A stretch of 64,000 nucleotides of DNA from IMG/VR virus record IMGVR_UViG_3300027747_004524, positions 1-64,000 of that record; one strand, given 5' to 3'. This document shows, piece after piece, positions 9,737 through 35,399 of the stretch. The DNA is from a virus. The stretch's first letter is position 1, and each line of letters begins with the position of its first letter. The notes under the pieces were generated by a model, which saw only the letters and a program-made list of their open reading frames with translations, was not told where the DNA came from and did not search any database. The translations under genes and the position numbers were made by a program.

Positions 9737-10011
9737 TGAAAAAGCATAAGCTTATAAATAAAAAAATAAAAAAGCTTATAGATAAAAAGTGCAAGTTCTG
9801 TGATTGTTCTACTTATGAGCTTTTAGACGTGCATCGTATAATAGAGGGCAATAAAGGCGGTAAATACACAGACCACAACACTGTCACTGTTTGCTCGTTG
9901 TGCCACAGAAAAATTCATGCTGGCATTATAAAGGTTGATAGAAAGTTTTTTTCCACCGCTGGCTGGGTTTTACATTATTTTGATGAAAACGGTGTTGAAA
10001 AGTACGACTAG
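9736..10011 (+). CDS. HNH endonuclease (91 aa)
   Basis: A compact HNH nuclease. C-x2-C (CKFC) is followed by DVHRI, a central Asn (DHNTVTVC), and C-x2-C-H-x3-H (CSLCHRKIH). Such small proteins nick or cut DNA as homing or packaging-associated nucleases. It directly follows the GT60-like gene. Its TAG stop shares the palindrome CTAG with the convergent gene on the minus strand. Confidence 0.82.
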   Translation: MKKHKLINKKIKKLIDKKCKFCDCSTYELLDVHRIIEGNKGGKYTDHNTVTVCSLCHRKIHAGIIKVDRKFFSTAGWVLHYFDENGVEKYD

Positions 10012-23855: not shown

Positions 23856-25262
23856 ATGAAAAACTGCGAAATTGTTGGCTTTGAACATTTGCATCTCCAT
23901 ACGGATTTTTCATTACTCGATGGCTTCGGCATGGTAGAGGAATTTGCCCAAAGAGCAACTCAAATAAATCAGAAATTTCTTACCGTGAGTGATCACGGTA
24001 TGCTGGGAGCGGTCCCTAGACAAATTCGTGCTTGCGAAAAAATAAATGAAAAAAAGGGAAAAGACACCCTTTCCTATATATTCGCAGCAGAACTCTATGT
24101 GAACCCGCTCCAGCCAGAGTCTAGCTGTTTGGAGGATATGCAGAAGTTCACTGCAGATTTAAACGAAGAAGAAAAAAAGGACATCAAGGCTAGTGCTCAC
24201 CTTTTAGCAATAGCTTACAGCGACGTTGGTTATAAAAACCTTGTTCGCTTAACCAGCTGGGGATGGACTAAAGGCTTTTATAGAAAGCCTAGAGTCAATT
24301 ACGATCAGCTTTTAAAGCACAAAGAAGGTCTGTTCTTTACTAGCTGTTGTTATAACAGTGAAGTAGGCAGGGCTTTTGACAGACACGGTGAAGACGCCGC
24401 TAATGCTGTTATAGAGCGTTATATTGAAATGTTTGGTAGGAGTCATTATTTCTTAGAGATAATGCTCTTAGACTTTAAGAAACAAAAACCCTATGACGCT
24501 TTTATAATTAAGGCCCATGAAAAGTATAAGCTTCCTTTGATTTTAACCAACGACTGTCATTACTGCAATCAAGAAGACAGCAAGTTCCAGAGGCTTATGT
24601 TGATGGTTCAAACAAATAGGACCGTTCAAGACATTCAGCGAGCTATGGCTGAAGACAATATGCAAGATTTCTTCGAGCTTCAGGATGCTAACCTTTGGAT
24701 GAAGAGCGAAGAAGAGCTAAATAAAAAGTGGCAAGAAGAATATTCCGACACGATTCCATACGAACTCTTTCAACAAGCAAAAAAGAACACCGTTACCATA
24801 TGCAACAAAGCAAAAGGTGTTCAATTAGACCGTAGCCTTAAGTTGCCTGTGCTTCCTGATGCTGATGATATACTAAAAGAAGAGATAATGAAGGGTTTTG
24901 CTGAAAAGAACCTTCCTAGAACCAAAGAATACCTAGGCAGGATTAAAGAAGAATACTCCTTAATAACTAGAAAGGGTTTTTCTAGCTACTTCCTTATACA
25001 AAAGAAAATGACCGACGAAGCCAGAAGAGTTTGTAGGAGTCTTTTGGGCTGGGGAGATGGAAGTCAGGCTGTAGGGCCTGCTAGAGGCTCTGCAGCGGGT
25101 GCTTTAACTTGTTACTGCTTGGGCATAACTACGGTTGACCCTGTGAAAGAAGGTCTACTGTTTAGTAGATTTATGAGTGAGGCTAGAGGCGGTAGGTCTA
25201 TTTGCTTAGAGTTTAAGAACTTGGACCCATTTCCCCCAAAAGAGGTTTTTAACGATCAATAA
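23856..25262 (+). CDS. dnaE: DNA polymerase III alpha, N-terminal gene (PHP and start of palm)
   Basis: 468 residues matching the N-terminal part of DnaE. The PHP domain opens with HLHTDFSLLDG and TVSDHG. The thumb/palm part ends with RGSAAGALTCYCLGIT (near residue 410) and LLFSRFMSEARG, after which normal DnaE continues with PDxDxDF. Here the frame instead ends after about 20 unrelated residues. The catalytic palm residues are in a separate gene at 32166. GGGAG SD. The two products presumably assemble into one polymerase. Confidence 0.88.
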   Translation: MKNCEIVGFEHLHLHTDFSLLDGFGMVEEFAQRATQINQKFLTVSDHGMLGAVPRQIRACEKINEKKGKDTLSYIFAAELYVNPLQPESSCLEDMQKFTADLNEEEKKDIKASAHLLAIAYSDVGYKNLVRLTSWGWTKGFYRKPRVNYDQLLKHKEGLFFTSCCYNSEVGRAFDRHGEDAANAVIERYIEMFGRSHYFLEIMLLDFKKQKPYDAFIIKAHEKYKLPLILTNDCHYCNQEDSKFQRLMLMVQTNRTVQDIQRAMAEDNMQDFFELQDANLWMKSEEELNKKWQEEYSDTIPYELFQQAKKNTVTICNKAKGVQLDRSLKLPVLPDADDILKEEIMKGFAEKNLPRTKEYLGRIKEEYSLITRKGFSSYFLIQKKMTDEARRVCRSLLGWGDGSQAVGPARGSAAGALTCYCLGITTVDPVKEGLLFSRFMSEARGGRSICLEFKNLDPFPPKEVFNDQ

Positions 25263-25302
25263 AAGCTTTAAACTTACTTTAATAGATTAGAAAGGATAAT
25301 TC

Positions 25303-25518
25303 ATGTTATACCATACAACAATTAATAAAGATGATAGGTGCCTAGACCTTCTCTTAACCGAAGAAGAGGTAGTCAAAGCTTTTGAGCGGTCTGTTGAAGC
25401 TTCAAACAGGTCTTATATTGATGAAAAGAAATGTTGCGGATGTTGGAGTATTGAGAAGCCTCCTAAATGCACTTTTTGGGCTAAAATAATGGGCTTGTGT
25501 TCCGAGTGTGATGAATGA
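25303..25518 (+). CDS. Small Cys-rich protein (71 aa)
   Basis: A C-terminal cluster of six cysteines (CCGC...C...C-x2-C) suggests metal binding. AAAGGA SD upstream of the ATG. Function unknown; the first gene inserted between the two polymerase genes. Confidence 0.55.
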   Translation: MLYHTTINKDDRCLDLLLTEEEVVKAFERSVEASNRSYIDEKKCCGCWSIEKPPKCTFWAKIMGLCSECDE

Positions 25519-25706
25519 GTGCTGGTCTTATTTTAGTAGGCTCAATATTACTGGTTACATTCTTGGGTATGTTCTTTATTACTATAGATATCTTTTACCC
25601 CAAGGAGCAGGAGCCTCGTTATCCTAAGATTGTAGAGCAATCTGAGGAATATTTCGAAAACAACCTTCATTATGACGAGCTAACAGAAGACACAGGGCCT
25701 TATTGA
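25515..25706 (+). CDS. Small membrane protein (63 aa)
   Basis: One N-terminal TM segment (LILVGSILLVTFLGMFFI) with an acidic tail. Starts in an ATGA overlap with the Cys-rich gene. Function unknown. Confidence 0.55.
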   Translation: MSAGLILVGSILLVTFLGMFFITIDIFYPKEQEPRYPKIVEQSEEYFENNLHYDELTEDTGPY

Positions 25707-25916
25707 ATGATTACTTTAGTTAAAATTATTGGTAGCTTTGTGCTATCGGTCTCTGTTTCTCTTGTTGTTTTGATTGCTACTTTGTTTCTTTTTGCTGCTT
25801 TAGTGAAAACATTTCGTTTAAACAATGGTGTAGATGCTTATTGGGTATTTTCACTTACTACAATTATAACAATAATATCATGGATAAGCAGCTTTATGTA
25901 TTTTTTGTTGCTATAA
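25707..25916 (+). CDS. Small membrane protein, two TM segments (69 aa)
   Basis: Almost wholly hydrophobic, with TM segments about 7-35 and 45-68 around a short polar loop. It begins immediately after the previous stop. Function unknown. Confidence 0.55.
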   Translation: MITLVKIIGSFVLSVSVSLVVLIATLFLFAALVKTFRLNNGVDAYWVFSLTTIITIISWISSFMYFLLL

Positions 25917-25920
25917 AATC

Positions 25921-26026
25921 TTCCTGTACGGGATTTTTCCAATATGATGTTACTAAATTTTCCTGCACGGGAATTTTTTAATTAATATTGACAAATTTTG
26001 TGATAAATTTCCCGTTCGGTAAATTT
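25921..26026. repeat. Three imperfect TTCC-N-CGG-T-run elements
   Basis: Copies at 25921-25938, 25960-25979 and 26009-26026 share TTCC(T/C)G-N2-CGG followed by a T-rich run, each able to fold into a small hairpin. They could be stacked weak terminators after the membrane genes, or protein binding sites upstream of the gene at 26074. Confidence 0.45.
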
Positions 26027-26047
26027 TAAATAAAACTGTTGTTTGTT

Positions 26048-26055
26048 CATAAATA
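26048..26055 (+). promoter_or_regulatory. CATAAATA late-type promoter
   Basis: CATAAATA, one base from the T4 late octamer, 18 nt before ATG 26074 with an AAAGGA SD between. A reasonable late promoter for that gene. Confidence 0.42.
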
Positions 26056-26073
26056 ACAAGTAGAAAGGATCAT

Positions 26074-26487
26074 ATGAAAGGCCCAATGCCTCTTGAGGAT
26101 CTCCCTGAGTATCTAAAGTCGCTCCAAAGAAACGGTTCTTTAGGAGATGGAATGGTTGTAGATATGGGCACAATAGTTTCCCCAAGAAAAAGCTGGCTAA
26201 AAGCTGCTTCTTACCTATCTGTTGCTATTCTATTTGTGGGAATAAGTGGATTAATGACTTACAACAAGTTGTCCACACAGAACGTCACAGTTGTTTTACA
26301 CGCCAACAACTCAGACCCTGACACAGTTTCAAAGATTGTAACAGATGGTGGAGACCATGTCGTTTCGGTTGAGCAAAAGAGCGATTCAACTTATGAAGTA
26401 AAGCTTTCTACTAGAAAAAGTTTAGCATCACTCATTGATTTACTTCTTAAAAACAAGGATGTTAGAAAGGTCGAACTAGAAGACTAG
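26074..26487 (+). CDS. Single-pass membrane protein (137 aa)
   Basis: A polar N-terminus (~45 residues), one TM segment (AASYLSVAILFVGISGLMTY) and a C-terminal domain with beta-alpha-beta character (VTVVLHANNSDPDTV...VVSVEQ), probably periplasmic. AAAGGA SD. Its stop shares CTAG with the convergent gene. Function unknown. Confidence 0.6.
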   Translation: MKGPMPLEDLPEYLKSLQRNGSLGDGMVVDMGTIVSPRKSWLKAASYLSVAILFVGISGLMTYNKLSTQNVTVVLHANNSDPDTVSKIVTDGGDHVVSVEQKSDSTYEVKLSTRKSLASLIDLLLKNKDVRKVELED

Positions 26488-28250
26488 GCTTCTACGCTTC
26501 TAGAGGAAGGTACTGGTTTCTTTTTTTCTATGTCTTCGTATGTTGCTGGCATATTTCTGATGTCGTACTCAAATTTGCTAGGATCATCGAACATAGATAC
26601 AAATTGCAATATTCTTTCTGATGCTTTTGTAACATAAGGCCAATAGTTCCAGAAACTAACAACTCTGTGGTCCAACCATAAGCGACCTAGAATAACTTCG
26701 GGATTAACACGAAGTAATGAACTTCTACCGTCTGTCCATTCAAGTTCATCTGTTACTTTTCTTATTGTTTTAATTGTTCCTGGCCCCATTCTTCCTACTT
26801 CTCTAGCAGCACCTGTCCAAGGATTCGCTTTTTCAAAGTTTGTGAGATGTTCTTCACCACCAGGATATGAGTTTGCTATTACTTTAAAAGCTAACCAATG
26901 ACATAAATCATCATGAAATGCACCTTTCACAGTTGGTGCATAAACTGAGTAGTCTTTGAACAATATGAACGTAACAGCAAACGAATCTATAGCTTTGAGT
27001 TTAGGCCTTCCCGTAATAGGGTTTCTTGAGACTTCGTTTGGATCTTCTTTTAGTAGCTCTAATCCTTCAAAAAAAAAAGATTCTAGAAAAGAGAGCCATT
27101 CTTTAAAGCTTATTTGTTCTGGACTTGTTTGTTCTCTCTTTCTCATGAAATCGTCCCATGCGGCATCTATCTCTTTTTGAGTTCTTCCACGAAATCCGCC
27201 AAGGGTTCGACCACGCATTCCTGCTGTCTGCCCCGGCTCAGAAGTTGTAGGTAGAACAGGTTCTGTACCACGTCCTTGCATGAATCCTTTGATCTGTCCT
27301 TTAGCTGCTGCACCACCATATTTGCGGCGAAGTAGTTCTCGTGTTGGTGCGAGTCCTCTCTCAATCTCTGGTTTGACAGAATATAACCCGTCTTTTTTCG
27401 CTCCTTGGTATGTTATATCTATACAATCACTGGATGGTAAAAACCCTCTTAGCTCTGGGTTTTCCTCTACAAATTCTTGGGTGAAAATTCTGCACAACGT
27501 TTCTTTTGCTCGTTTTCCTTCTAGGGTCGCCCCGGCACTATGCATTGCCGTTCTAAGTTTCTCAAAGTCTGAATATGTGTACATTGAGCTTCCGACTTTG
27601 TACTCTTTATCAAAGTCAGTTTTTGACTCGACTCCTGCTGAAACTGAGGAATATGGATAAAAGGAATTTCCAAGTTGAAAATAAAACTCTTCTGGATCTT
27701 CTCCTAAAGCTTTAATTAATTTTGTGATTAGCCCCAATGATGGTTTGAGCTGTTCGGGTGAATAAAGTCCCCAGAAAGAAACTACCTTATCTGTTAGTGG
27801 TTCCTCGTAGACTTCTTCGCCCTCTTCTGGCATTTCCGGAGCATTGTGTGCAGTAATTCCTGTGCCTCGCCACAATCTTCCTTTTAACATTAATTCTGAT
27901 GCGTCATAAGACCAAGGAGATTTATCACCAGACAGGAAATCTTTTGCTAAAGACTTTGCCGCAGGACCCATTTGTCCTATTGTTTTTAGGTGATCTTTGT
28001 AAAACTCCCAAGCATCTTCTTGATCTTCATCAAGTGATATATTGTTTTCTTGTCTAAGCTTAAGGGCCCATGCTTCTGCTAATGCTACGTGTCCACTGTT
28101 AGAACTGTTGGCCCGTGCTCCTTCAACACCAGCTGTTGAATAGACCACGTATCCTTCTGTGAAGGCTATGAAAGATACTGCGTCTTCTCTCGTATACCCT
28201 ACACGTTCATTATTTATATAAAAGTTATCTGGGCTTTCATTTAATTTCAT
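26484..28250 (-). CDS. 588-residue protein with an internal duplication and embedded tag motif
   Basis: Function unknown. The N-terminal and C-terminal halves share motifs in the same order: an Asp-Ser/Ala-Phe-Val-x-F strand (residues ~23 and ~415), GRLW, VVSFW and a DP-x-x-F segment (residues ~190 and ~570). Between the halves lies ISFKEWLSFLES, the same motif that starts the tagged proteins. The simplest reading is a fusion of two related proteins, the second of which once began with a tag. It lies downstream of two tagged genes on one minus-strand operon. Confidence 0.62.
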   Translation of the reverse strand: MKLNESPDNFYINNERVGYTREDAVSFIAFTEGYVVYSTAGVEGARANSSNSGHVALAEAWALKLRQENNISLDEDQEDAWEFYKDHLKTIGQMGPAAKSLAKDFLSGDKSPWSYDASELMLKGRLWRGTGITAHNAPEMPEEGEEVYEEPLTDKVVSFWGLYSPEQLKPSLGLITKLIKALGEDPEEFYFQLGNSFYPYSSVSAGVESKTDFDKEYKVGSSMYTYSDFEKLRTAMHSAGATLEGKRAKETLCRIFTQEFVEENPELRGFLPSSDCIDITYQGAKKDGLYSVKPEIERGLAPTRELLRRKYGGAAAKGQIKGFMQGRGTEPVLPTTSEPGQTAGMRGRTLGGFRGRTQKEIDAAWDDFMRKREQTSPEQISFKEWLSFLESFFFEGLELLKEDPNEVSRNPITGRPKLKAIDSFAVTFILFKDYSVYAPTVKGAFHDDLCHWLAFKVIANSYPGGEEHLTNFEKANPWTGAAREVGRMGPGTIKTIRKVTDELEWTDGRSSLLRVNPEVILGRLWLDHRVVSFWNYWPYVTKASERILQFVSMFDDPSKFEYDIRNMPATYEDIEKKKPVPSSRSVEA

Positions 28251-28260
28251 GTTTTATCTG

Positions 28261-28764
28261 TTATTCTAAGCTTATTTGTTGTGCACCGTTCATTATTGGA
28301 TTGTCTTCACTGTGTCCAACACTATCGGCTACATTGCCAGTCAAATTGGCCACGGTTACGTGATAGACTCTATTTGGTTCTATTTGAATGTTTGTCTGCT
28401 GTGCAAGTTCTTCCATGTATCTTTTAAGTGCTTCTTGTTCGACTACCACAGCAAAAACTGACTTTTTGCCATCTCTTTCTACTGAATAAATTTGGCTTGG
28501 ATTAAAAGTTATTTCTGTCTGCAAAGGAGGCAGAACAGCTCCTTTTAAAGGCTTTGCAAGCTGTTGGTGTAACATGGTTACATGTAGCTTGTCTTGTGGC
28601 AAAGGCTTCAAGTCAGGAAACTTTTCTAGAACTTTATTTTGTATTTCTACTATTTGGGTTGGATTTGGTTTGACCTTCAGTATACCAGTGTGCTCTGGTT
28701 GGTAATTTTCCTGAAGAATTCTAGATTTAACCCACTCGTTAAAAGAAAAATTATAGCTATGCAT
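28261..28764 (-). CDS. Tagged 2H phosphoesterase
   Basis: 167 residues. The N-terminal tag MHSYNFSFNEWVKSRILQE ends in an LQE site. Two H-x-T motifs at residues 61-63 (HVT) and 135-137 (HVT) define the 2H phosphoesterase fold, which cleaves 2',5' or cyclic phosphodiester bonds in RNA or signalling nucleotides. Phage 2H enzymes include Acb1, which destroys CBASS cyclic nucleotides; that role is only possible here. Start overlaps the upstream gene by 8 bp. Confidence 0.72.
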   Translation of the reverse strand: MHSYNFSFNEWVKSRILQENYQPEHTGILKVKPNPTQIVEIQNKVLEKFPDLKPLPQDKLHVTMLHQQLAKPLKGAVLPPLQTEITFNPSQIYSVERDGKKSVFAVVVEQEALKRYMEELAQQTNIQIEPNRVYHVTVANLTGNVADSVGHSEDNPIMNGAQQISLE

Positions 28765-30184
28765 TTTTTCCTTTCGTTTGAAGTAATTTAGCCATTTTTG
28801 ATTCTAGTTCTTTTACTTTTTGTTTGGCTTTCTGTAGTTCGGATTCAAGCTCTCGGACCTTTGCCCCTTCTGGTGTGTTCGAATATCCGCGAACCGCCGC
28901 ACGACGTGCCCTGCTCCCCCCGTCAGTGAATTTTCCGACTGTTCCTCTAGTATCGGTCCACTTTTTAGCTTCATACACGTCATCAGCCATCCCCATTTGT
29001 ACGAGTGTAACCATTTTTGCTTCTATTTCTTTTACTCTTTTTTTTGCATCTGCTAGCTGGATCTTAAGCTTTGAGTATGGTCTTCCATCTGTTCTTTTTT
29101 CTTCATCCGAAAATGGCTCTCTCATTGATGTTAGTCTTTCTCTTGCACTTTCTGGAGCATCTACACTCCCTAGTGATGCCATCATTCTAGGGTGCCATGT
29201 TGCTTCTTTTGGTAGAAATGGGTTTTCATTGCTATTTGGTCCCATGTTCATGCCCATTCCCATTCCTGCTCCTTCATGGTCTTCTTCGTCTCCCATGTCC
29301 ATGTCATCATGGCCTTCTTCATCTTCCATGTCTTCATGGTCTTCATGGTCATGGTCGTGGTCTTCACCTTCTTCGTCGCCCATTTCTTCCATGTCTTCAT
29401 GGTCATGGTCTTCATCGTCGTCCATGTCTTCATGATCGTGATCTTCACCTTCTTCGTCTTCCATGTCTCCGTCTTCGTTTTCGTAATCTTCATCTCCTTC
29501 ATGATCATGGTCTTTGTGGCCTTCTTCATCGCCCATTCCTTCCTCATCTTCTAAACCAACAGGCTCAGCGACCATTTCGTTAAACATTTTGTCAAAATTT
29601 GTTGAGTAGTTCTTACTTTCAATTAGCTTAGAAAGTATGTCGTATGATTCTGGAGTGTTGAAAACTTCCTTCATCAATCCTTCTAGTATCTTTCCTCTTT
29701 TAGCTTCTCTTACAAATGTGAGTAGGTTCTTTTTATTGCACTGACATGCTTCAACTAGTTTTTTTGCTGCTTCGTGTACACCTTCTGAGCAATTGCTTTC
29801 TTTCTTCATTCTTTTTGCAAGTTCTGCTATTGATAGGTTCTTTGTATCTTTTACCCATTCTGATACGCCTGTTTTGGGCCATGTTCTTGTTTCTTTTGAT
29901 TTTTCATCTACATTTGGTTGGTAAACTAGTTTTTGGTCGCCTTTGTAAACCAATCCGTTTTTGTCTTCTTTGTTTGGATCCTTTGCGTTCTCACCGTTTG
30001 AATAAGGACTTGCATCCCCAACTTGTCCTTTTCCACCACTTGAGCAACCGCAATCGGTTTTCTTCAAGGATTCCTTTTCTGGTTTTCTGGGTTGTTTCCC
30101 TTCAAAGTCTGCTACTTTTGCAACTTTTGGCTTTTCTACTAGCTTTTTGTTTTGATCAATGTATTCTTGAAAACTTTTGAACAT
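28757..30184 (-). CDS. Tagged protein with long Asp/Glu/His-rich region (475 aa)
   Basis: The N-terminus MFKSFQEYIDQNKKLVEK carries the tag. Next is a charged linker with Cys pairs, then a helical domain (~130-210). Residues ~215-310 are a very acidic stretch with repeated (D/E)-H-D-H units, and the C-terminus holds two similar coiled-coil helices (KVKELESKM, RVKEIEAKM). It could be a head core or scaffold-like protein, a metal sink or a DNA mimic. First gene of the minus-strand operon, with AAAGGAG SD and CATATATATC upstream. Antisense open frames over the acidic repeat are shadows. Confidence 0.65.
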   Translation of the reverse strand: MFKSFQEYIDQNKKLVEKPKVAKVADFEGKQPRKPEKESLKKTDCGCSSGGKGQVGDASPYSNGENAKDPNKEDKNGLVYKGDQKLVYQPNVDEKSKETRTWPKTGVSEWVKDTKNLSIAELAKRMKKESNCSEGVHEAAKKLVEACQCNKKNLLTFVREAKRGKILEGLMKEVFNTPESYDILSKLIESKNYSTNFDKMFNEMVAEPVGLEDEEGMGDEEGHKDHDHEGDEDYENEDGDMEDEEGEDHDHEDMDDDEDHDHEDMEEMGDEEGEDHDHDHEDHEDMEDEEGHDDMDMGDEEDHEGAGMGMGMNMGPNSNENPFLPKEATWHPRMMASLGSVDAPESARERLTSMREPFSDEEKRTDGRPYSKLKIQLADAKKRVKEIEAKMVTLVQMGMADDVYEAKKWTDTRGTVGKFTDGGSRARRAAVRGYSNTPEGAKVRELESELQKAKQKVKELESKMAKLLQTKGKNA

Positions 30185-30228
30185 GGGGATTTTTCTCCTT
30201 TTGTGATATATATGGTGCTAAATTCAAT

Positions 30229-30257
30229 TTTACGAGCCCTAATTTGTGTGCTATAAT
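30229..30257 (+). promoter_or_regulatory. Sigma70-type promoter of the tmRNA
   Basis: TTTACG (30229-30234), a 17-bp spacer, then TATAAT (30252-30257). The tmRNA 5' end begins about 10 nt later, as expected for its own promoter. Confidence 0.72.
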
Positions 30258-30266
30258 GCTATTAAT

Positions 30267-30615
30267 GGGGTCGTAAAGGTATCGACGTAGTGATAGGAGG
30301 TATTGGTGGCACGTCGAGGTTGGTCGATGGCCTCGTAAAAATCGACTAAAGCCTTAACTGGCGAAGTTTCTTACGCAATGGCTGCCTGAGAAGGTATCCA
30401 CGAATCTAGGAAGCCACGCGGGAAGCGTCCAAAGATTCGTCGCAAAATCCTGCTGGTATCAAACTGGTCGGCTTAGTTTGGTATGAGAAAATAGGCCGAA
30501 AGACTCAAAGACCTTTGTTCATTGTGGTCAATGAAGTCTTATGAACAATGAAACAAACGTGTAGAAGCCATATCAAGTACGCTTACGGACAGGGGTTCGA
30601 CTCCCCTCGACTCCA
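30267..30615 (+). ncRNA. ssrA: tmRNA (SsrA)
   Basis: Trans-translation RNA that rescues stalled ribosomes. The tRNA-like ends pair as GGGGTCG/CGACTCC with discriminator A; the T arm is AGGGG-TTCGACT-CCCCT. CCA is not encoded. The tag frame is at 30351-30386 followed by TGA and reads ALTGEVSYAMAA, ending in the usual AA degradation signal. About 349 nt, a normal length. It has its own promoter and a strong terminator and lies between the two dnaE genes. No smpB is in the window, so it would rely on the host protein or one encoded elsewhere. Confidence 0.95.
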
Positions 30616-30617
30616 CT

Positions 30618-30655
30618 AAAGGGAGGACTACTAAAAAGTGGTCCTCCCTTTTTTT
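30618..30655 (+). terminator. Rho-independent terminator of tmRNA
   Basis: AAAGGGAGGAC(T)AC / GTGGTCCTCCCTTT hairpin followed by seven or more T. It ends the tmRNA transcript. Confidence 0.92.
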
Positions 30656-30686
30656 GTTAAATGTTTAGACAGTTGTTTAGGAAAAG

Positions 30687-30815
30687 TTATAAGCGACATC
30701 CCAGATCCTGATTAACTGTTATTGAGTAGTTACTTCCATTAATTGTGTAAAACGATTGATCAAAATGATTTTGATTTAATTGGTTTTCTAAAAGCCATTG
30801 ATTAAATGTTTTCAT
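30687..30815 (-). CDS. Tagged 42-residue protein (MKTFNQWLLENQ start)
   Basis: A short minus-strand frame whose N-terminus MKTFNQWLLE is the closest match in the window to the T4 capsid-targeting sequence (MKTYQEFIAE kind), with LLE for cleavage. The remaining 32 residues are Asn/Gln-rich and unrecognised. It starts 4 nt past the stop of the ParB-like/methyltransferase gene on the same strand. Confidence 0.58.
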   Translation of the reverse strand: MKTFNQWLLENQLNQNHFDQSFYTINGSNYSITVNQDLGCRL

Positions 30816-30818
30816 AGT

Positions 30819-31838
30819 TTATCTATTTAACATATACGTTTTTCTTCCAAAATTTCCTGTGTTATCATCTTTGGAATTGTCTGACACCATGTTGATTTTG
30901 AATCCTAAATCATTCATATATTTTAATTGTTCGTATCCCTCTTTATCATTGTTTGTTTCTAAAAATATTGTTTTTGCAATCCTAGAGACGTTAAGATACA
31001 AGCCACGCCAGTTTTTAATCCATGATCCTAAAGAAAACAGGAAAGCTACATCGAACTCTTCTTTTATGTCAAGCGGCAGATTCAAGTCTTTTTTTTGAAA
31101 TTCAAGATTGTACGTAAATTGAAATATCTTTTTAAGTTGGTTTGCACAATCTATACATCTTTTGTCAAATTCTAAACCAACACCTCTTTTGATCTCAGTC
31201 AAGTGAAATAGCATTCCTCCATTGTTGCATCCTAGATCTAGCACTGTCTTGCCTTCGAAGTTGTAATATTTTTTTAGACTTTCTATTCTTTTCTTTGGTG
31301 TTCTTTGTCCTTTAAGGTTTATGTTTCCAATGTTAAAAGAATGATACCCATTTTCTGTTCTGTTGAACCACGGATTAGTTTGGTCGGACTTTCCACAAGT
31401 TTTTTTTATTTCTTTTTCTACAAAGTCTATTGAAAGACGATCAAAATACAAATCAAAATTATTTTCCTTCAACTGATCGGTTACCAACCTATTGTTTATA
31501 CACACGCAGATTCTATGAAGTCCATCTATTATTACAAATTTATCTAATTCTAAAGAGTGAAACACACTTATCTTTACTCTTTCTAGGTTTTTGATGTCCG
31601 ATGCTAGTTGAAGAAACTTTTCTTTACTTCGTCCATACTGTTCAGCTTCTTTGATGTACTTTTCATATTCTTCAAAATTGTTCGAAGATAGTGCTTTAAA
31701 ATTTACTGTTTCTTCAATTGGCACTATTTTGAACGATGGTGAGTTTTTGAATGCTTCATCTTTGAACTTGCAGCCACCAAAAGGACTTGATATGGTCAAG
31801 TTTTGGAGGGCAAATATTCTATTTAATTTTATGGGCAT
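30819..31838 (-). CDS. ParB-like domain fused to SAM methyltransferase
   Basis: 339 residues. The N-terminal half has a ParB/sulfiredoxin-like pattern (VPIEET...FVIIDGLHRICV), and the C-terminal half is a class I methyltransferase with motif I VLDLGCNNGG near residue 200 and GVGLEFD as motif II. ParB-like modules in phages often bind DNA or nucleotides, so this could modify DNA or a small molecule. It is divergent from tRNA-Asn. Substrate unknown. Confidence 0.65.
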   Translation of the reverse strand: MPIKLNRIFALQNLTISSPFGGCKFKDEAFKNSPSFKIVPIEETVNFKALSSNNFEEYEKYIKEAEQYGRSKEKFLQLASDIKNLERVKISVFHSLELDKFVIIDGLHRICVCINNRLVTDQLKENNFDLYFDRLSIDFVEKEIKKTCGKSDQTNPWFNRTENGYHSFNIGNINLKGQRTPKKRIESLKKYYNFEGKTVLDLGCNNGGMLFHLTEIKRGVGLEFDKRCIDCANQLKKIFQFTYNLEFQKKDLNLPLDIKEEFDVAFLFSLGSWIKNWRGLYLNVSRIAKTIFLETNNDKEGYEQLKYMNDLGFKINMVSDNSKDDNTGNFGRKTYMLNR

Positions 31839-31841
31839 GAT

Positions 31842-31870
31842 TTGACATTTGTCCCTCCATAGTCTATTAT
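31842..31870 (+). promoter_or_regulatory. Strong sigma70 promoter for tRNA-Asn and dnaE C-terminal gene
   Basis: Perfect TTGACA (31842-31847), a 17-bp spacer, then TATTAT (31865-31870). The tRNA begins 10 nt later, and the transcript can continue into the membrane gene and polymerase gene. Confidence 0.8.
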
Positions 31871-31879
31871 AAAAGAAAT

Positions 31880-31951
31880 TGCTTGGTAGCTCAATGGTAG
31901 AGCAGCCGGCTGTTAACCGGCGGGTTATAAGTTCGAGTCTTATCCAAGCAG
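31880..31951 (+). tRNA. tRNA-Asn (anticodon GTT)
   Basis: Acceptor stem TGCTTGG/CCAAGCA, D arm GGTAGAGC, anticodon stem GCCGG/CCGGC around CTGTTAA (anticodon GTT), T loop GTTCGAGTC, discriminator G. CCA is not encoded. It lies 3 bp before the next coding gene, so it must be cut from that mRNA. Confidence 0.95.
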
Positions 31952-31954
31952 CTT

Positions 31955-32161
31955 ATGGAAAATTCTTTTGTATATCGTTTCTTTTTGGTCTTGGCCCGTA
32001 CTATAGACCATAGAGTTGGGAAGACAGATTCTGATGCACCTGACATACCTGTGTTGACCATGCAAGAAGCTTTGGTTTCTTTTTTTATCAAGTTTTTTAT
32101 TGTATTGGTCAATTTTATTACGTGTGCTTTTGTAATAGCAAGTATTATCCATCACTGGTAG
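31955..32161 (+). CDS. Small membrane protein (68 aa)
   Basis: A polar N-terminal half and a C-terminal TM segment (FFIVLVNFITCAFVIASII). The ATG is 3 nt after the tRNA and there is no clear SD, so translation may be weak or depend on tRNA processing. Function unknown. Confidence 0.5.
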   Translation: MENSFVYRFFLVLARTIDHRVGKTDSDAPDIPVLTMQEALVSFFIKFFIVLVNFITCAFVIASIIHHW

Positions 32162-32165
32162 AGAT

Positions 32166-35100
32166 ATGTCAAAAGAAGATGAAGACCTTGAAGCATTGTG
32201 TGTTTCTTCTCTTAAAAACAAGAAGCTAGATAATGATCCTAATTTTTATAAAAGGCTTAGGTGGGAGCTTGAGGAGATCAAGGCAAAGAATAGGTCCAAC
32301 TATTTCTTAGATCTACACAAAAGAAAAGTTTTTTATCCAAGTAATGAGAATAACTTACTGACTTGTTGGCTTCTGGGTATCGTTTCTAGCGTTGATATCA
32401 ACAAAGAGCCTAAATGTGAGTATGGGGATTATCCCGATATCGACGTAGATTTTATTCCGGTTGTGAGAGAGTATTTAAAAAATACTTGGGCTCCTTCTAC
32501 TTTCGGTGAAGAGTACGTTTGCAACATAGGAAATTATACTACCTTCGGGATTAAGTCCGCTTTAATAGACATGGCTCGTGTTCATGGTGAAAGCCGTGAT
32601 GAAATTTTAGCCTTAACCAAGAACTTAGATGCCAAAGACGATGAAGGCAAGGCTATGACTTGGGACTCAGCCATGAAGCTGAATCCTGATCTTAAAAAGT
32701 ATTGTGACAGATATCCTGAGATAGCTGAGTCCGCGAAAAAACTTCTGAATAGAAATAGAGGAATGGGTGTTCATGCTGGAGGGTTGATAATATCTAACTC
32801 TCCACTGCCCGAACTAGTTCCACTTGTAAAAAGAAAAGATAACCCTCAAGCGTCTGCTTGGGTTGAGGGCTTGCACGGCCAAGACCTTCAGCCGGTCGGC
32901 CTTGTTAAATTTGATCTTCTAGTTATATCAAATCTGCTACAGATAGCTAAATGCTGCGAGTTAGTTAAGAACAGACATAACCTAAAGGGTATTTGTGCAT
33001 TAGAGGGACAGGCAGACTGGTCAGACGTTAAAGCCTGGCGAAACGACTCTGTTGCTTTAGAGATGGCAAACTCCGGTGATCTCAAAGGCATCTTTCAGTT
33101 TGATAGTGAAACTGTAAGAGGCATGTGCCAGAATGGTGGTGTGGACAGATTTGAAGATTTAGTTGCTTATACGAGTTTGAATCGTCCCGGTCCTCTTAAC
33201 ATGAAGATGCAGGAACGATACATCGAAAGAAAAAGGGGTCGGGAAGATTATTCACTACATTCTTTGATAGAACCCATATTAGGCGACACTTATGGGGTTA
33301 TGATTTATCAAGAACAAGTCATGAAAATCCTTAACGTGGTTGGAGAGATTCCTCTTAAGGATTGCGAGCTTGTTCGAAAAGCAATAAGCAAGAAGAAGAT
33401 AGATAGCTTCATAAAGTACAAAGAGATGTTTGTTCGTAACGGCCAAAAGAATTTAGGCGTTAACGAAAAAGAGGTTGAAGATCTTTGGCGAGCTATTGAG
33501 GCTTTTAGCGAATATGGTTTCAATAAATCTATGCACCAAGATACATATATATCTACGCCTAAAGGACTTAAGAAAATTTGTGATTTTCAAAAAGGGGACA
33601 TAGTTTATTGTATCGATGAATTAGGCAACACGGTAGAAACGGAAGTGGTCAATCTTCACTATCATGGGATCTTACAAGGTTATAAAGTAGAATTTGATGA
33701 TGGCTATAAAATAGTTTGCACTTTAGACCATAAGTTTCTCACACAAGAGGGACAGAAGCCTCTCCATGAAATTATATTGAATAAGACTTCTGTTCTTTGT
33801 GAAAAAGAATTTGGAGGAAATTATGCCGAAGAGAAGAGAAGATGGTTGGATGTCGAAGTGCAAAAAGAAGTTCCCCAGGCTAGAGATGTCTTGCTTCCAC
33901 AGCAGCACAGGAAGAATGACGTTAGAATGGTGGACCACCTTTCAGAACATGCTCCAATCTCCAATACCCGGGGTTTGGTGTCTAGGAAAATTGTACGAGT
34001 TGTGCCCGTGGGCGAACGACAAATGTACGATCTTGAAGTTTCCTGCCTAACACACAACTTTATTTTGCCAAATGGAGTAGTAACAAGTAATAGCCATGCC
34101 GTTGCTTATAGCTATGTCTCTGCATATCTTCTTTATCTAAAGTCTCATTATCCCCACGAGTTTTATACCAGCATACTTAGTTGTGAAACACTAAGCGACA
34201 AAATAAAAGAATACAAAATGGAGGCTAAACTCCATGATGTAAACGTGCTTCCTATAGAAGTTAATCGATCAAAGGTCAATTTTGATCTTCAAGGTGAAGA
34301 CATATACTTTGGACTATCCAACGTTAAAGGAGTAGGAGAAGCTCCCGCGAAGAGAATAGTAGACCTACAACCGTTCAGTGGGTTTGAAGATTTTCTAGAA
34401 AGATTTGGGACTGATGCCAACGTTCTCAAACCTTTAATTGGCCTTAGGTGTTTTAATGAAAGCGACCCGGTCACTTTGTGGAAGTTCTCAGAGTGTTATA
34501 AACTTTTTTCAAAAAGAAACGAAGACAAAAAGAAAAGGTACATTGCTGCTTTAGAAAAGTACGAAGAAGAGTTTAAGGAGCTTTTTCCTGAGGAGAGCAT
34601 AAGGCTTAGTGATATAAAAGGAGACTCTCCTTTTGAAGATCCTTATTGGATCAAGTACAATGCAGACGGCGACCAATTTATAGAGAAAAGAGTTGAGTGT
34701 GATAAAGATGATGAAGGAGCTTATGCAAAAGTCGTAAACACCCCAGTAACTTTGGATTGCGGTTTGACCATAGAGAAAGAGACTGTTAAGTACTATAAAA
34801 AGGTTAAAGTCAGAAGAAACTGGAATCGGTTAGTTGCTTTTAGATCGCTTTGGAACAAGAGAAACAAGTCCATTGAAAGGTATAAGCTCATATCAAAGGA
34901 CAGTCCAACGCTTGCAACTTTTGATCCATCAAAACACGATATTGATGGAAACCTTGAAGAAGAACTTAGCAACTTAGACTTTTGTGAAAATAAGTACTAT
35001 GGATTTAGCTGGATACATCCATTGGAGAACAGCCCAGACTATAGGGGCAATCTCACCTTTAACAATTTAAAAGCATCAGAAGACGTTGCTGTGGGGGCAG

Positions 35101-35399
35101 TAGAGATTAAGGTACTTAAGGCTACGAAAACAAAGAGTAAAAAAGGCACAGAATATTACCAAATTCAGGCCGAAGACGTCACAGGGCAATCGAACAAGAT
35201 AATAGTTTGGTTGGACGATTGGGAAAGATGGAGCGAGGAGCTTTCTCCAAACAATCTACTTAGAATAAGGCTTCAGCCGCCTTCTAATGGATTCGCTACT
35301 TTTACACTTGAATCGAACAGTAGCGGATTTAGATGGAAGGGCGTCAAAAAGTACCCTGACAAGAAGGACGATATTAGGATTGTTGTTCTTAGTAGTTAG
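32166..35399 (+). CDS. dnaE: DNA polymerase III alpha, C-terminal gene (palm to C-terminus) with intein
   Basis: 1077 residues encoded, about 889 after intein removal. The catalytic palm begins with YPDIDVDF near residue 90 (two metal-binding Asp). Finger blocks VMIYQEQVM and FNK/SHAVAYS follow, and the C-terminal region carries OB-like sequence (GAVEIKVLK). The first ~85 residues are a worn copy of the segment that ends the other dnaE gene: LTCWLLGIVSSVDINKEP aligns with LTCYCLGITTVDPVKEG but has lost RGSAAG. The third palm Asp of DnaE appears as Glu (DCELVRKA); that alignment is uncertain. It would replicate phage DNA together with the 23856 product. Confidence 0.88.
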   Translation: MSKEDEDLEALCVSSLKNKKLDNDPNFYKRLRWELEEIKAKNRSNYFLDLHKRKVFYPSNENNLLTCWLLGIVSSVDINKEPKCEYGDYPDIDVDFIPVVREYLKNTWAPSTFGEEYVCNIGNYTTFGIKSALIDMARVHGESRDEILALTKNLDAKDDEGKAMTWDSAMKLNPDLKKYCDRYPEIAESAKKLLNRNRGMGVHAGGLIISNSPLPELVPLVKRKDNPQASAWVEGLHGQDLQPVGLVKFDLLVISNLLQIAKCCELVKNRHNLKGICALEGQADWSDVKAWRNDSVALEMANSGDLKGIFQFDSETVRGMCQNGGVDRFEDLVAYTSLNRPGPLNMKMQERYIERKRGREDYSLHSLIEPILGDTYGVMIYQEQVMKILNVVGEIPLKDCELVRKAISKKKIDSFIKYKEMFVRNGQKNLGVNEKEVEDLWRAIEAFSEYGFNKSMHQDTYISTPKGLKKICDFQKGDIVYCIDELGNTVETEVVNLHYHGILQGYKVEFDDGYKIVCTLDHKFLTQEGQKPLHEIILNKTSVLCEKEFGGNYAEEKRRWLDVEVQKEVPQARDVLLPQQHRKNDVRMVDHLSEHAPISNTRGLVSRKIVRVVPVGERQMYDLEVSCLTHNFILPNGVVTSNSHAVAYSYVSAYLLYLKSHYPHEFYTSILSCETLSDKIKEYKMEAKLHDVNVLPIEVNRSKVNFDLQGEDIYFGLSNVKGVGEAPAKRIVDLQPFSGFEDFLERFGTDANVLKPLIGLRCFNESDPVTLWKFSECYKLFSKRNEDKKKRYIAALEKYEEEFKELFPEESIRLSDIKGDSPFEDPYWIKYNADGDQFIEKRVECDKDDEGAYAKVVNTPVTLDCGLTIEKETVKYYKKVKVRRNWNRLVAFRSLWNKRNKSIERYKLISKDSPTLATFDPSKHDIDGNLEEELSNLDFCENKYYGFSWIHPLENSPDYRGNLTFNNLKASEDVAVGAVEIKVLKATKTKSKKGTEYYQIQAEDVTGQSNKIIVWLDDWERWSEELSPNNLLRIRLQPPSNGFATFTLESNSSGFRWKGVKKYPDKKDDIRIVVLSS
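33528..34091 (+). other. Mini-intein in DnaE (residues 455-642)
   Basis: 188 codons interrupt the finger motif FNK/SHAVAYS. Block A starts with Ser1 (SMHQDTYISTPKG...GDIVYC), block B is TLDHKFLT, and block F is YDLEVSCLTHNFILPNG, ending T-S-N before Ser+1. No LAGLIDADG or HNH homing domain is present. The residue before the terminal Asn is Ser rather than His. The insertion point is a few residues beyond the one I remember for cyanobacterial split DnaE inteins. Confidence 0.88.

What the first reader, a model, noticed from the sequence alone, without database searches (positions are those of the whole stretch)
23856..35399. Split DNA polymerase III alpha with overlapping, decayed junction segments
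The N-terminal gene ends after RGSAAGALTCYCLGIT...; the C-terminal gene begins with a degenerate copy of the same segment (LTCWLLGIVSSVDINKEP, lacking RGSAAG) and then continues with PDIDVDF. A simple break would not duplicate this stretch. It fits a tandem duplication followed by complementary loss, leaving two subunits 7 kb apart with tmRNA, a tRNA and packaged-protein genes in between.
Basis: partly seen in the sequence, partly recalled or inferred. Interest (0 to 1): 0.75.

Follow-up and report, generated by a model that had tools for sequence, protein, structure and literature searches.

The report
Two-gene DNA polymerase III alpha subunit
A group of large phages encodes its main DNA-copying enzyme as two separate proteins, each holding a different half of one active site plus a worn copy of the other's half, apparently because the gene was once duplicated and each copy then lost what the other kept.

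Summary
Confirmed, and larger than reported. The window has two dnaE genes, N (23856-25262, PHP plus the start of the palm) and C (32166-35399, rest of palm, fingers, HhH, an intein). Together they tile E. coli alpha (3-396 and 398-759), and they share about 110 homologous residues. The loss is reciprocal. N keeps the nucleotide-binding RGS motif and ends in a strand that has lost the catalytic aspartates. C keeps PDIDVDF but has lost the RGS motif. The same state holds in about 60 IMG/VR contigs. No full-length dnaE was found in the split-family records searched; one has an extra 573-aa mini-DnaE. Four related phages have an intact dnaE, and in three of them gene order shows that C sits at the ancestral locus while N lies upstream of a conserved gene and the tmRNA. 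Duplication with complementary loss is therefore the best history. Separating the GS and DxD halves is already known from a minimal Pol III of RaK2-like jumbo phages (Iyer 2021), there as a clean break. Side finding: in many relatives the N gene is interrupted inside its PHP motif by stop-containing inserts next to covarying hairpins, possible translational bypass elements.

The parts
23856..25262 (+). [quoted passage not shown]
   Evidence: PF02811 E 2.5e-30, PF07733 3-98; aligns E. coli/T. aquaticus alpha PHP and palm
24858..25214 (+). overlap segment in the N chain (residues about 335-453), homologous to the C-chain head
25083..25091 (+). R410-G411-S412, nucleotide-binding GS motif, kept only in the N chain
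   Evidence: invariant in alignment A1 and in N tails
25197..25214 (+). pseudo-DxD strand SICLEF (residues 448-453) at the N chain's end, aspartates lost
   Evidence: no DxD in the 19 N tails aligned; in several relatives the chain stops right after it; read against KDYPDVDVDF of the intact L075 protein
28757..30184 (-). conserved gene of unknown function (475 aa, His/Asp/Glu-rich repeat) between the halves
   Evidence: homolog between the halves in 15 of 15 split loci; upstream of the intact dnaE in L075-L077
30267..30618 (+). tmRNA gene
   Evidence: Rfam RF00023, 131 bits; also between the halves in L010, L012, L014, L017, and upstream of intact dnaE in L075-L078
31880..31952 (+). tRNA-Asn (gtt)
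   Evidence: ARAGORN and Rfam
32166..35399 (+). [quoted passage not shown]
   Evidence: PF07733 100-259, PF17657, PF14579; residues 88-455 align E. coli alpha 398-759
32166..32426 (+). C-chain head (residues 1-87): second copy of the palm start without the GS motif
   Evidence: pN/pS 0.35-0.49
32343..32381 (+). NENNLLTCWLLGI, the place of RGSAAGALTCYCLGI with the GS motif lost
   Evidence: GRGS absent in 15 of 15 C heads
32433..32453 (+). PDIDVDF, catalytic aspartates D91 and D93, kept only in the C chain
   Evidence: invariant D91 and D93; aligned to E. coli PDFDVDF
32913..32915 (+). D250 (GLVKFDLLV), third catalytic aspartate
   Evidence: aligned to GLVKFDFLG of E. coli alpha
33528..34091 (+). 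intein, residues 455-642, between FNK and SHAVAY
   Evidence: Pfam Intein_splicing and NCBIfam intein_Nterm matches, both below the curated cut-off; missing in closest relatives

Best explanation
The two genes encode a two-chain replicative DNA polymerase III alpha. An ancestral intact dnaE, lying downstream of the conserved minus-strand gene and the tmRNA as in LR756511, was duplicated. The upstream copy lost everything after the DxD strand and became the N chain (PHP nuclease plus GS motif). The copy at the original locus lost the PHP and the GS loop and became the C chain (catalytic aspartates, fingers, HhH). Shown: the split, the shared segment, the reciprocal motif loss, its conservation across the clade, the common origin with intact dnaE, the gene order and the purifying selection. 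Inferred: that the chains bind each other, that the GS loop of N and the aspartates of C form one active site, and that the duplicated helices help form the joint.
For: Tiling of E. coli alpha 3-396 / 398-759. Homology of the overlap. N tails end 36-61 residues after the GS motif, and C heads lack it, in all split loci classified; no intact relative is among them. In 17 of the 20 records searched both halves occur together and alone; of the other 3, one is a 36-kb fragment with N only, one is the intact-dnaE phage, and G017 has both halves plus an extra mini-DnaE. Both chains cluster at 100/100 with the intact dnaE of L075-L078. Gene order A-B-MF(-)-tmRNA-dnaE-E-F-G (intact) against A-B-N-MF(-)-tmRNA-C-E-F-G (window). 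Purifying selection on N overlap (pN/pS 0.05-0.20) and C head (0.35-0.49). Two relatives have an insertion in the N gene exactly at GRG|S, intein-like at its end, as inteins often sit at active sites. No family B polymerase in these records.
Against: The C head evolves about three times faster than the rest of C. A PolA-family gene (430-449 aa) exists in 8 of 12 records, including the window phage's second assembly, so replication need not rest on DnaE alone. One relative also carries a small one-chain DnaE (L083). Monophyly of the split is not statistically secured. The records are metagenomic contigs of unknown completeness.
Confidence: 0.76

Rival explanations
1. N is no longer part of the polymerase: it is a free PHP nuclease or regulator, and C polymerises alone with its degenerate head.
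For: C carries all three catalytic aspartates, the fingers and HhH; N carries a complete PHP motif set.
Against: The GS loop of N is invariant and under strong constraint although a free PHP nuclease would not need it; no C head has any GS loop.
Confidence: 0.12
2. Simple break by an inserted element; the similarity of the C head to the N tail is fortuitous.
For: Phage genes are often split by mobile elements (PMC2988022); a TnpB-like gene lies just upstream of N.
Against: Significant profile homology, continuous alignment of C from residue 8 to intact dnaE, conserved C-head motif in 15 of 15.
Confidence: 0.04
3. The split is ancestral and the intact dnaE of L075-L078 is a later re-fusion.
For: In the C-only tree the intact clade is nested among split ones with weak support; AU test does not reject nesting, p 0.30 and 0.22.
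Against: Outgroup phages and bacteria have intact dnaE; the concatenated maximum-likelihood tree places the intact clade as sister to all splits, so one event suffices.
Confidence: 0.14
4. The two halves are joined again after transcription or translation (split intein or trans-splicing).
For: Inteins and a group I intron occur in these genes.
Against: No intein or intron signature at the break; both chains have their own ends; the duplicated segment would be retained in a joined product; Rfam finds no intron in the window.
Confidence: 0.03

Closest known systems
Split minimal DNA polymerase III alpha of group 2.2 (RaK2/GAP32-like) jumbo phages, Iyer et al. 2021, PMC7824862
   Same: GS (nucleotide-binding) and DxD (metal-binding) halves of the palm on separate, distant genes, broken at the same joint of the palm.
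   Different: RaK2 chains are about 172 and 213 aa, without PHP, with a clean break (N ends ...LDVNEFLKY, C begins about 15 residues before DIDID), beside a family B polymerase. Here nearly all Pol III domains, an overlap of about 110 residues, and no family B polymerase. That the RaK2/GAP32 genes are the ones Iyer et al. meant is my reading; the paper's text names group 2.2 without these accessions in the parts I read.
Intact DnaE of huge phage LR756511 and IMG/VR relatives (L075-L078)
   Same: Closest sequences (47-56 per cent for N and C) and the same neighbourhood.
   Different: One chain with both motifs.
Split family B polymerase genes 43A/43B of Aeromonas T4-like phages (PMC2988022)
   Same: A replicative phage polymerase as two chains; there 43A and 43B co-purify and are active.
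   Different: Family B; clean break by an inserted sequence; no duplicated segment described.
Split-intein DnaE of cyanobacteria (own knowledge)
   Same: dnaE in two genes.
   Different: There a split intein joins the chains; no split intein here.
Interrupted dnaE of Staphylococcus phage RQ1 (PV344601)
   Same: Interruption at the DxD strand (LPD | IDID).
   Different: An insert with an endonuclease frame between abutting pieces, no overlap.

Membership tests
C-family DNA polymerase (Pol III alpha, DnaE) | PHP domain | tested here: met
   PF02811 E 2.5e-30 in N; D46, H47, E79, H115, C164, C165, D233, H235 invariant
C-family DNA polymerase (Pol III alpha, DnaE) | Pol-beta-like palm with GS motif, DxD and third Asp | tested here: met
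   GS in N, DxD and D250 in C; met only by the pair
C-family DNA polymerase (Pol III alpha, DnaE) | fingers and HhH domains | tested here: met
   PF17657, PF14579 in C
C-family DNA polymerase (Pol III alpha, DnaE) | single polypeptide | tested here: not met
C-family DNA polymerase (Pol III alpha, DnaE) | DNA polymerase activity | not testable with these tools
   no biochemistry available
Group 2.2 split minimal Pol III (Iyer 2021) | GS and DxD halves on separate genes | tested here: met
Group 2.2 split minimal Pol III (Iyer 2021) | minimal chains without other Pol III domains | tested here: not met
   PHP, fingers, HhH present
Group 2.2 split minimal Pol III (Iyer 2021) | accompanied by family B polymerase | tested here: not met
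   no PF00136 in 12 records
Group 2.2 split minimal Pol III (Iyer 2021) | clean break without duplicated segment (seen in RaK2 and GAP32) | tested here: not met
   overlap here
Split-intein DnaE | intein halves at the break | tested here: not met
   no intein match at N end or C start

The most novel reading that the evidence does not exclude
An obligate two-chain replicative polymerase whose single active site was divided by duplication and reciprocal loss, the GS loop on one chain and the catalytic aspartates on the other, with both pseudo-halves kept as the interface, fixed across a clade of large phages.
Probability: 0.6. Interest if true: 0.75.

Novelty: new variant of a known kind. Interest (0 to 1): 0.64.

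Why it matters
It looks like duplication, degeneration and complementation acting inside one catalytic site of an essential enzyme, with intact relatives, gene order and both worn copies still readable, so the path from one chain to two can be traced and tested. It also suggests that the joint between the GS helix and the DxD strand of C-family polymerases tolerates separation, since RaK2-like phages are broken at the same place.

Tried and rejected
Structure prediction of both chains (closed), so no fold search. Remnants of PHP or of the C part between the halves in nine split loci: none at E up to 1. Two separate origins for N and C: rejected, both group with the same intact clade. Assembly artefact: rejected, the split recurs in about 60 contigs and in an independent assembly of the same phage (L003/L034). 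Other two-gene or interrupted dnaE in cultured phages (Trina, Aesir, MrMiyagi, AM8, RQ1) were looked at: Trina and Aesir break before the GS motif, MrMiyagi and AM8 after the aspartates, RQ1 has an insert at the DxD strand; none shows this arrangement. AU test could not decide between one split and split plus re-fusion.

Full report
Observation. N (23856-25262) has PHP and the first third of the PF07733 palm domain; C (32166-35399) has the rest of PF07733, the fingers and HhH, and an intein between FNK and SHAVAY. Against solved structures, N aligns with E. coli or mycobacterial alpha up to the residue before the SMPDFDVDF strand, and C aligns from that strand on (N to E. coli 396, C from 398). 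The own record holds no third PF07733 match. The tmRNA and the tRNA-Asn between the halves are real.

The overlap. C does not begin at the catalytic strand. Its first 87 residues repeat the palm start that N also carries. Profile comparison of 19 N tails with 15 C heads gives score 33.1 (P 1.5e-5) over 44 columns, against at most 19.6 in 60 column shuffles; intact dnaE of LR756511 aligns to N residues 5-444 and, over the shared stretch, to C from residue 8. The loss is reciprocal. All 19 N tails aligned keep RGS and have no DxD; they end in a strand such as SICLEF, SLQLEF or QIKLKF where intact relatives have PDVDVDF, and in some phages the protein stops right there. All 15 C heads aligned lack the GS loop but keep, with variation, YxKRLxWExxEI, YF, NNLLxCWLLGI and then PDxDxD.

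Distribution. Searches of IMG/VR by N, C and motif patterns gave about 60 contigs, not dereplicated, of the split type; the motif classifier found N tails closed 36-61 residues after the GS motif and GS-less C heads, and no intact gene among them. Where contigs are long enough both halves are present. Intact dnaE was found in four close relatives only, LR756511 and L076-L078. In the collection of 50,697 phage records no other close relative exists. One split-type contig (G017) also carries a separate 573-aa mini-DnaE with both motifs in one chain.

Origin. N and C separately, and concatenated, fall with the intact clade at 100/100, so both come from one lineage. The concatenated tree places the intact clade outside all splits, with weak support; nesting is not rejected (AU p 0.30, 0.22). 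Gene order is the strongest evidence. The intact loci of L075-L077 read A, B, MF(minus), tmRNA, dnaE, then E, F, G; the window reads A (15692), B (16914), N (23856), MF minus (28757), tmRNA (30267), C (32166), E (36504), F (38800), G (39992). The MF homolog lies between the halves in 15 of 15 split loci. C therefore sits at the ancestral dnaE place and N is the extra copy, as expected after duplication of the stretch MF-tmRNA-dnaE, or of the start of dnaE, with later losses.

Function. Both copies of the shared segment are maintained: pN/pS is 0.05-0.20 in N and 0.35-0.49 in the C head, against 0.13-0.17 in the rest of C (synonymous sites are near saturation, so these are rough). The invariant GS loop in N, which a free PHP nuclease would not need, and the aspartates in C argue for one composite active site. 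Two relatives carry insertions in N exactly at GRG|S. A small family A polymerase is also present in 8 of 12 records, including the intact-dnaE phage, and family B is absent, so DnaE is the likely replicase but not proven.

Comparison. Iyer et al. 2021 (PMC7824862) described a minimal Pol III alpha in group 2.2 jumbo phages split into nucleotide-binding and metal-binding chains. I located the candidates in RaK2 (172 and 213 aa) and GAP32: they break cleanly at the same joint, without PHP. Split family B genes 43A/43B of T4-like phages co-purify and are active (PMC2988022). The present case differs in its near-complete domain set, its overlap and its reciprocal degeneration. I found no paper describing it; the library searched is open-access only.

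Side finding. In many relatives, though not in the window, the N gene is interrupted at one site, the PHP motif HLHLH-TDFSLLDG. Inserts either begin with TAG directly after the His codon and total 6, 7 or 8 bases, or hold a GC-rich hairpin of about 40 bases. The coding sequence just upstream then forms a long stem: z -4.6 to -9.4 against synonymous codon shuffles, against -1.3 to 0.9 in uninterrupted genes; L017/L029 are an exception in that 45-base window, but their stem reaches further upstream. The stem covaries (154 of 154 cells paired; four pairs changed on both sides). The downstream reading frame differs between phages, so readthrough or one frameshift cannot explain all. Phage T4 gene 60 bypassing has a UAG right after the take-off codon and a 5' stem loop (PMC5009743). 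Bypass is a candidate; the bases before the resumption point match the His codon only loosely, so RNA-level removal is not excluded. One relative has a group I intron at the same site.

Noticed in passing
L010 (about 9960-10010), L012, L014, L015/L021, L016, L017/L029, L023 group, L028, L032, L036, L110-L136: N-chain gene interrupted inside the PHP motif HLHLH-TDFSLLDG by stop-containing inserts (6-8 nt beginning with TAG, or about 40 nt with a GC-rich hairpin), directly after a long covarying hairpin made of coding sequence; downstream frame differs between phages. Candidate translational bypass elements like T4 gene 60, or RNA-level removal.
   Followed up: partly
L026:9725-9987: Group I intron (Rfam RF00028, 74.7 bits) at the same site of the N-chain gene.
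   Followed up: partly
L026, L027 (N chains); window 33528-34091; L010, L017, L033, L005: Insertions at active-site motifs of the split polymerase: at GRG|S of N in L026 and L027 (intein-like ends), an intein at FNK|SHA of C in the window, others elsewhere in N and C of relatives.
   Followed up: no
L083:1495-3213 (G017, 145-kb contig): A second, small DnaE-like protein (573 aa, GS and DxD in one chain, no PHP) in a contig that also has the split pair.
   Followed up: partly
window 22051-23499: TnpB/Cas12f-like gene (PF07282) directly upstream of the N chain.
   Followed up: no
window 28757-30184 (-): Gene of unknown function with His/Asp/Glu-rich repeats, conserved beside the tmRNA and dnaE in split and intact phages.
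   Followed up: partly
G001:C1:86856-87650: PolA-family polymerase domain (449-aa frame) in the second assembly of the window's phage, not found in G000 itself; similar genes of 430-446 aa in seven of the other records searched.
   Followed up: no
PV344601.1 23777-28700 (Staphylococcus phage RQ1): dnaE interrupted at the DxD strand (LPD | IDID) by an insert with an endonuclease frame; no Rfam intron match.
   Followed up: partly
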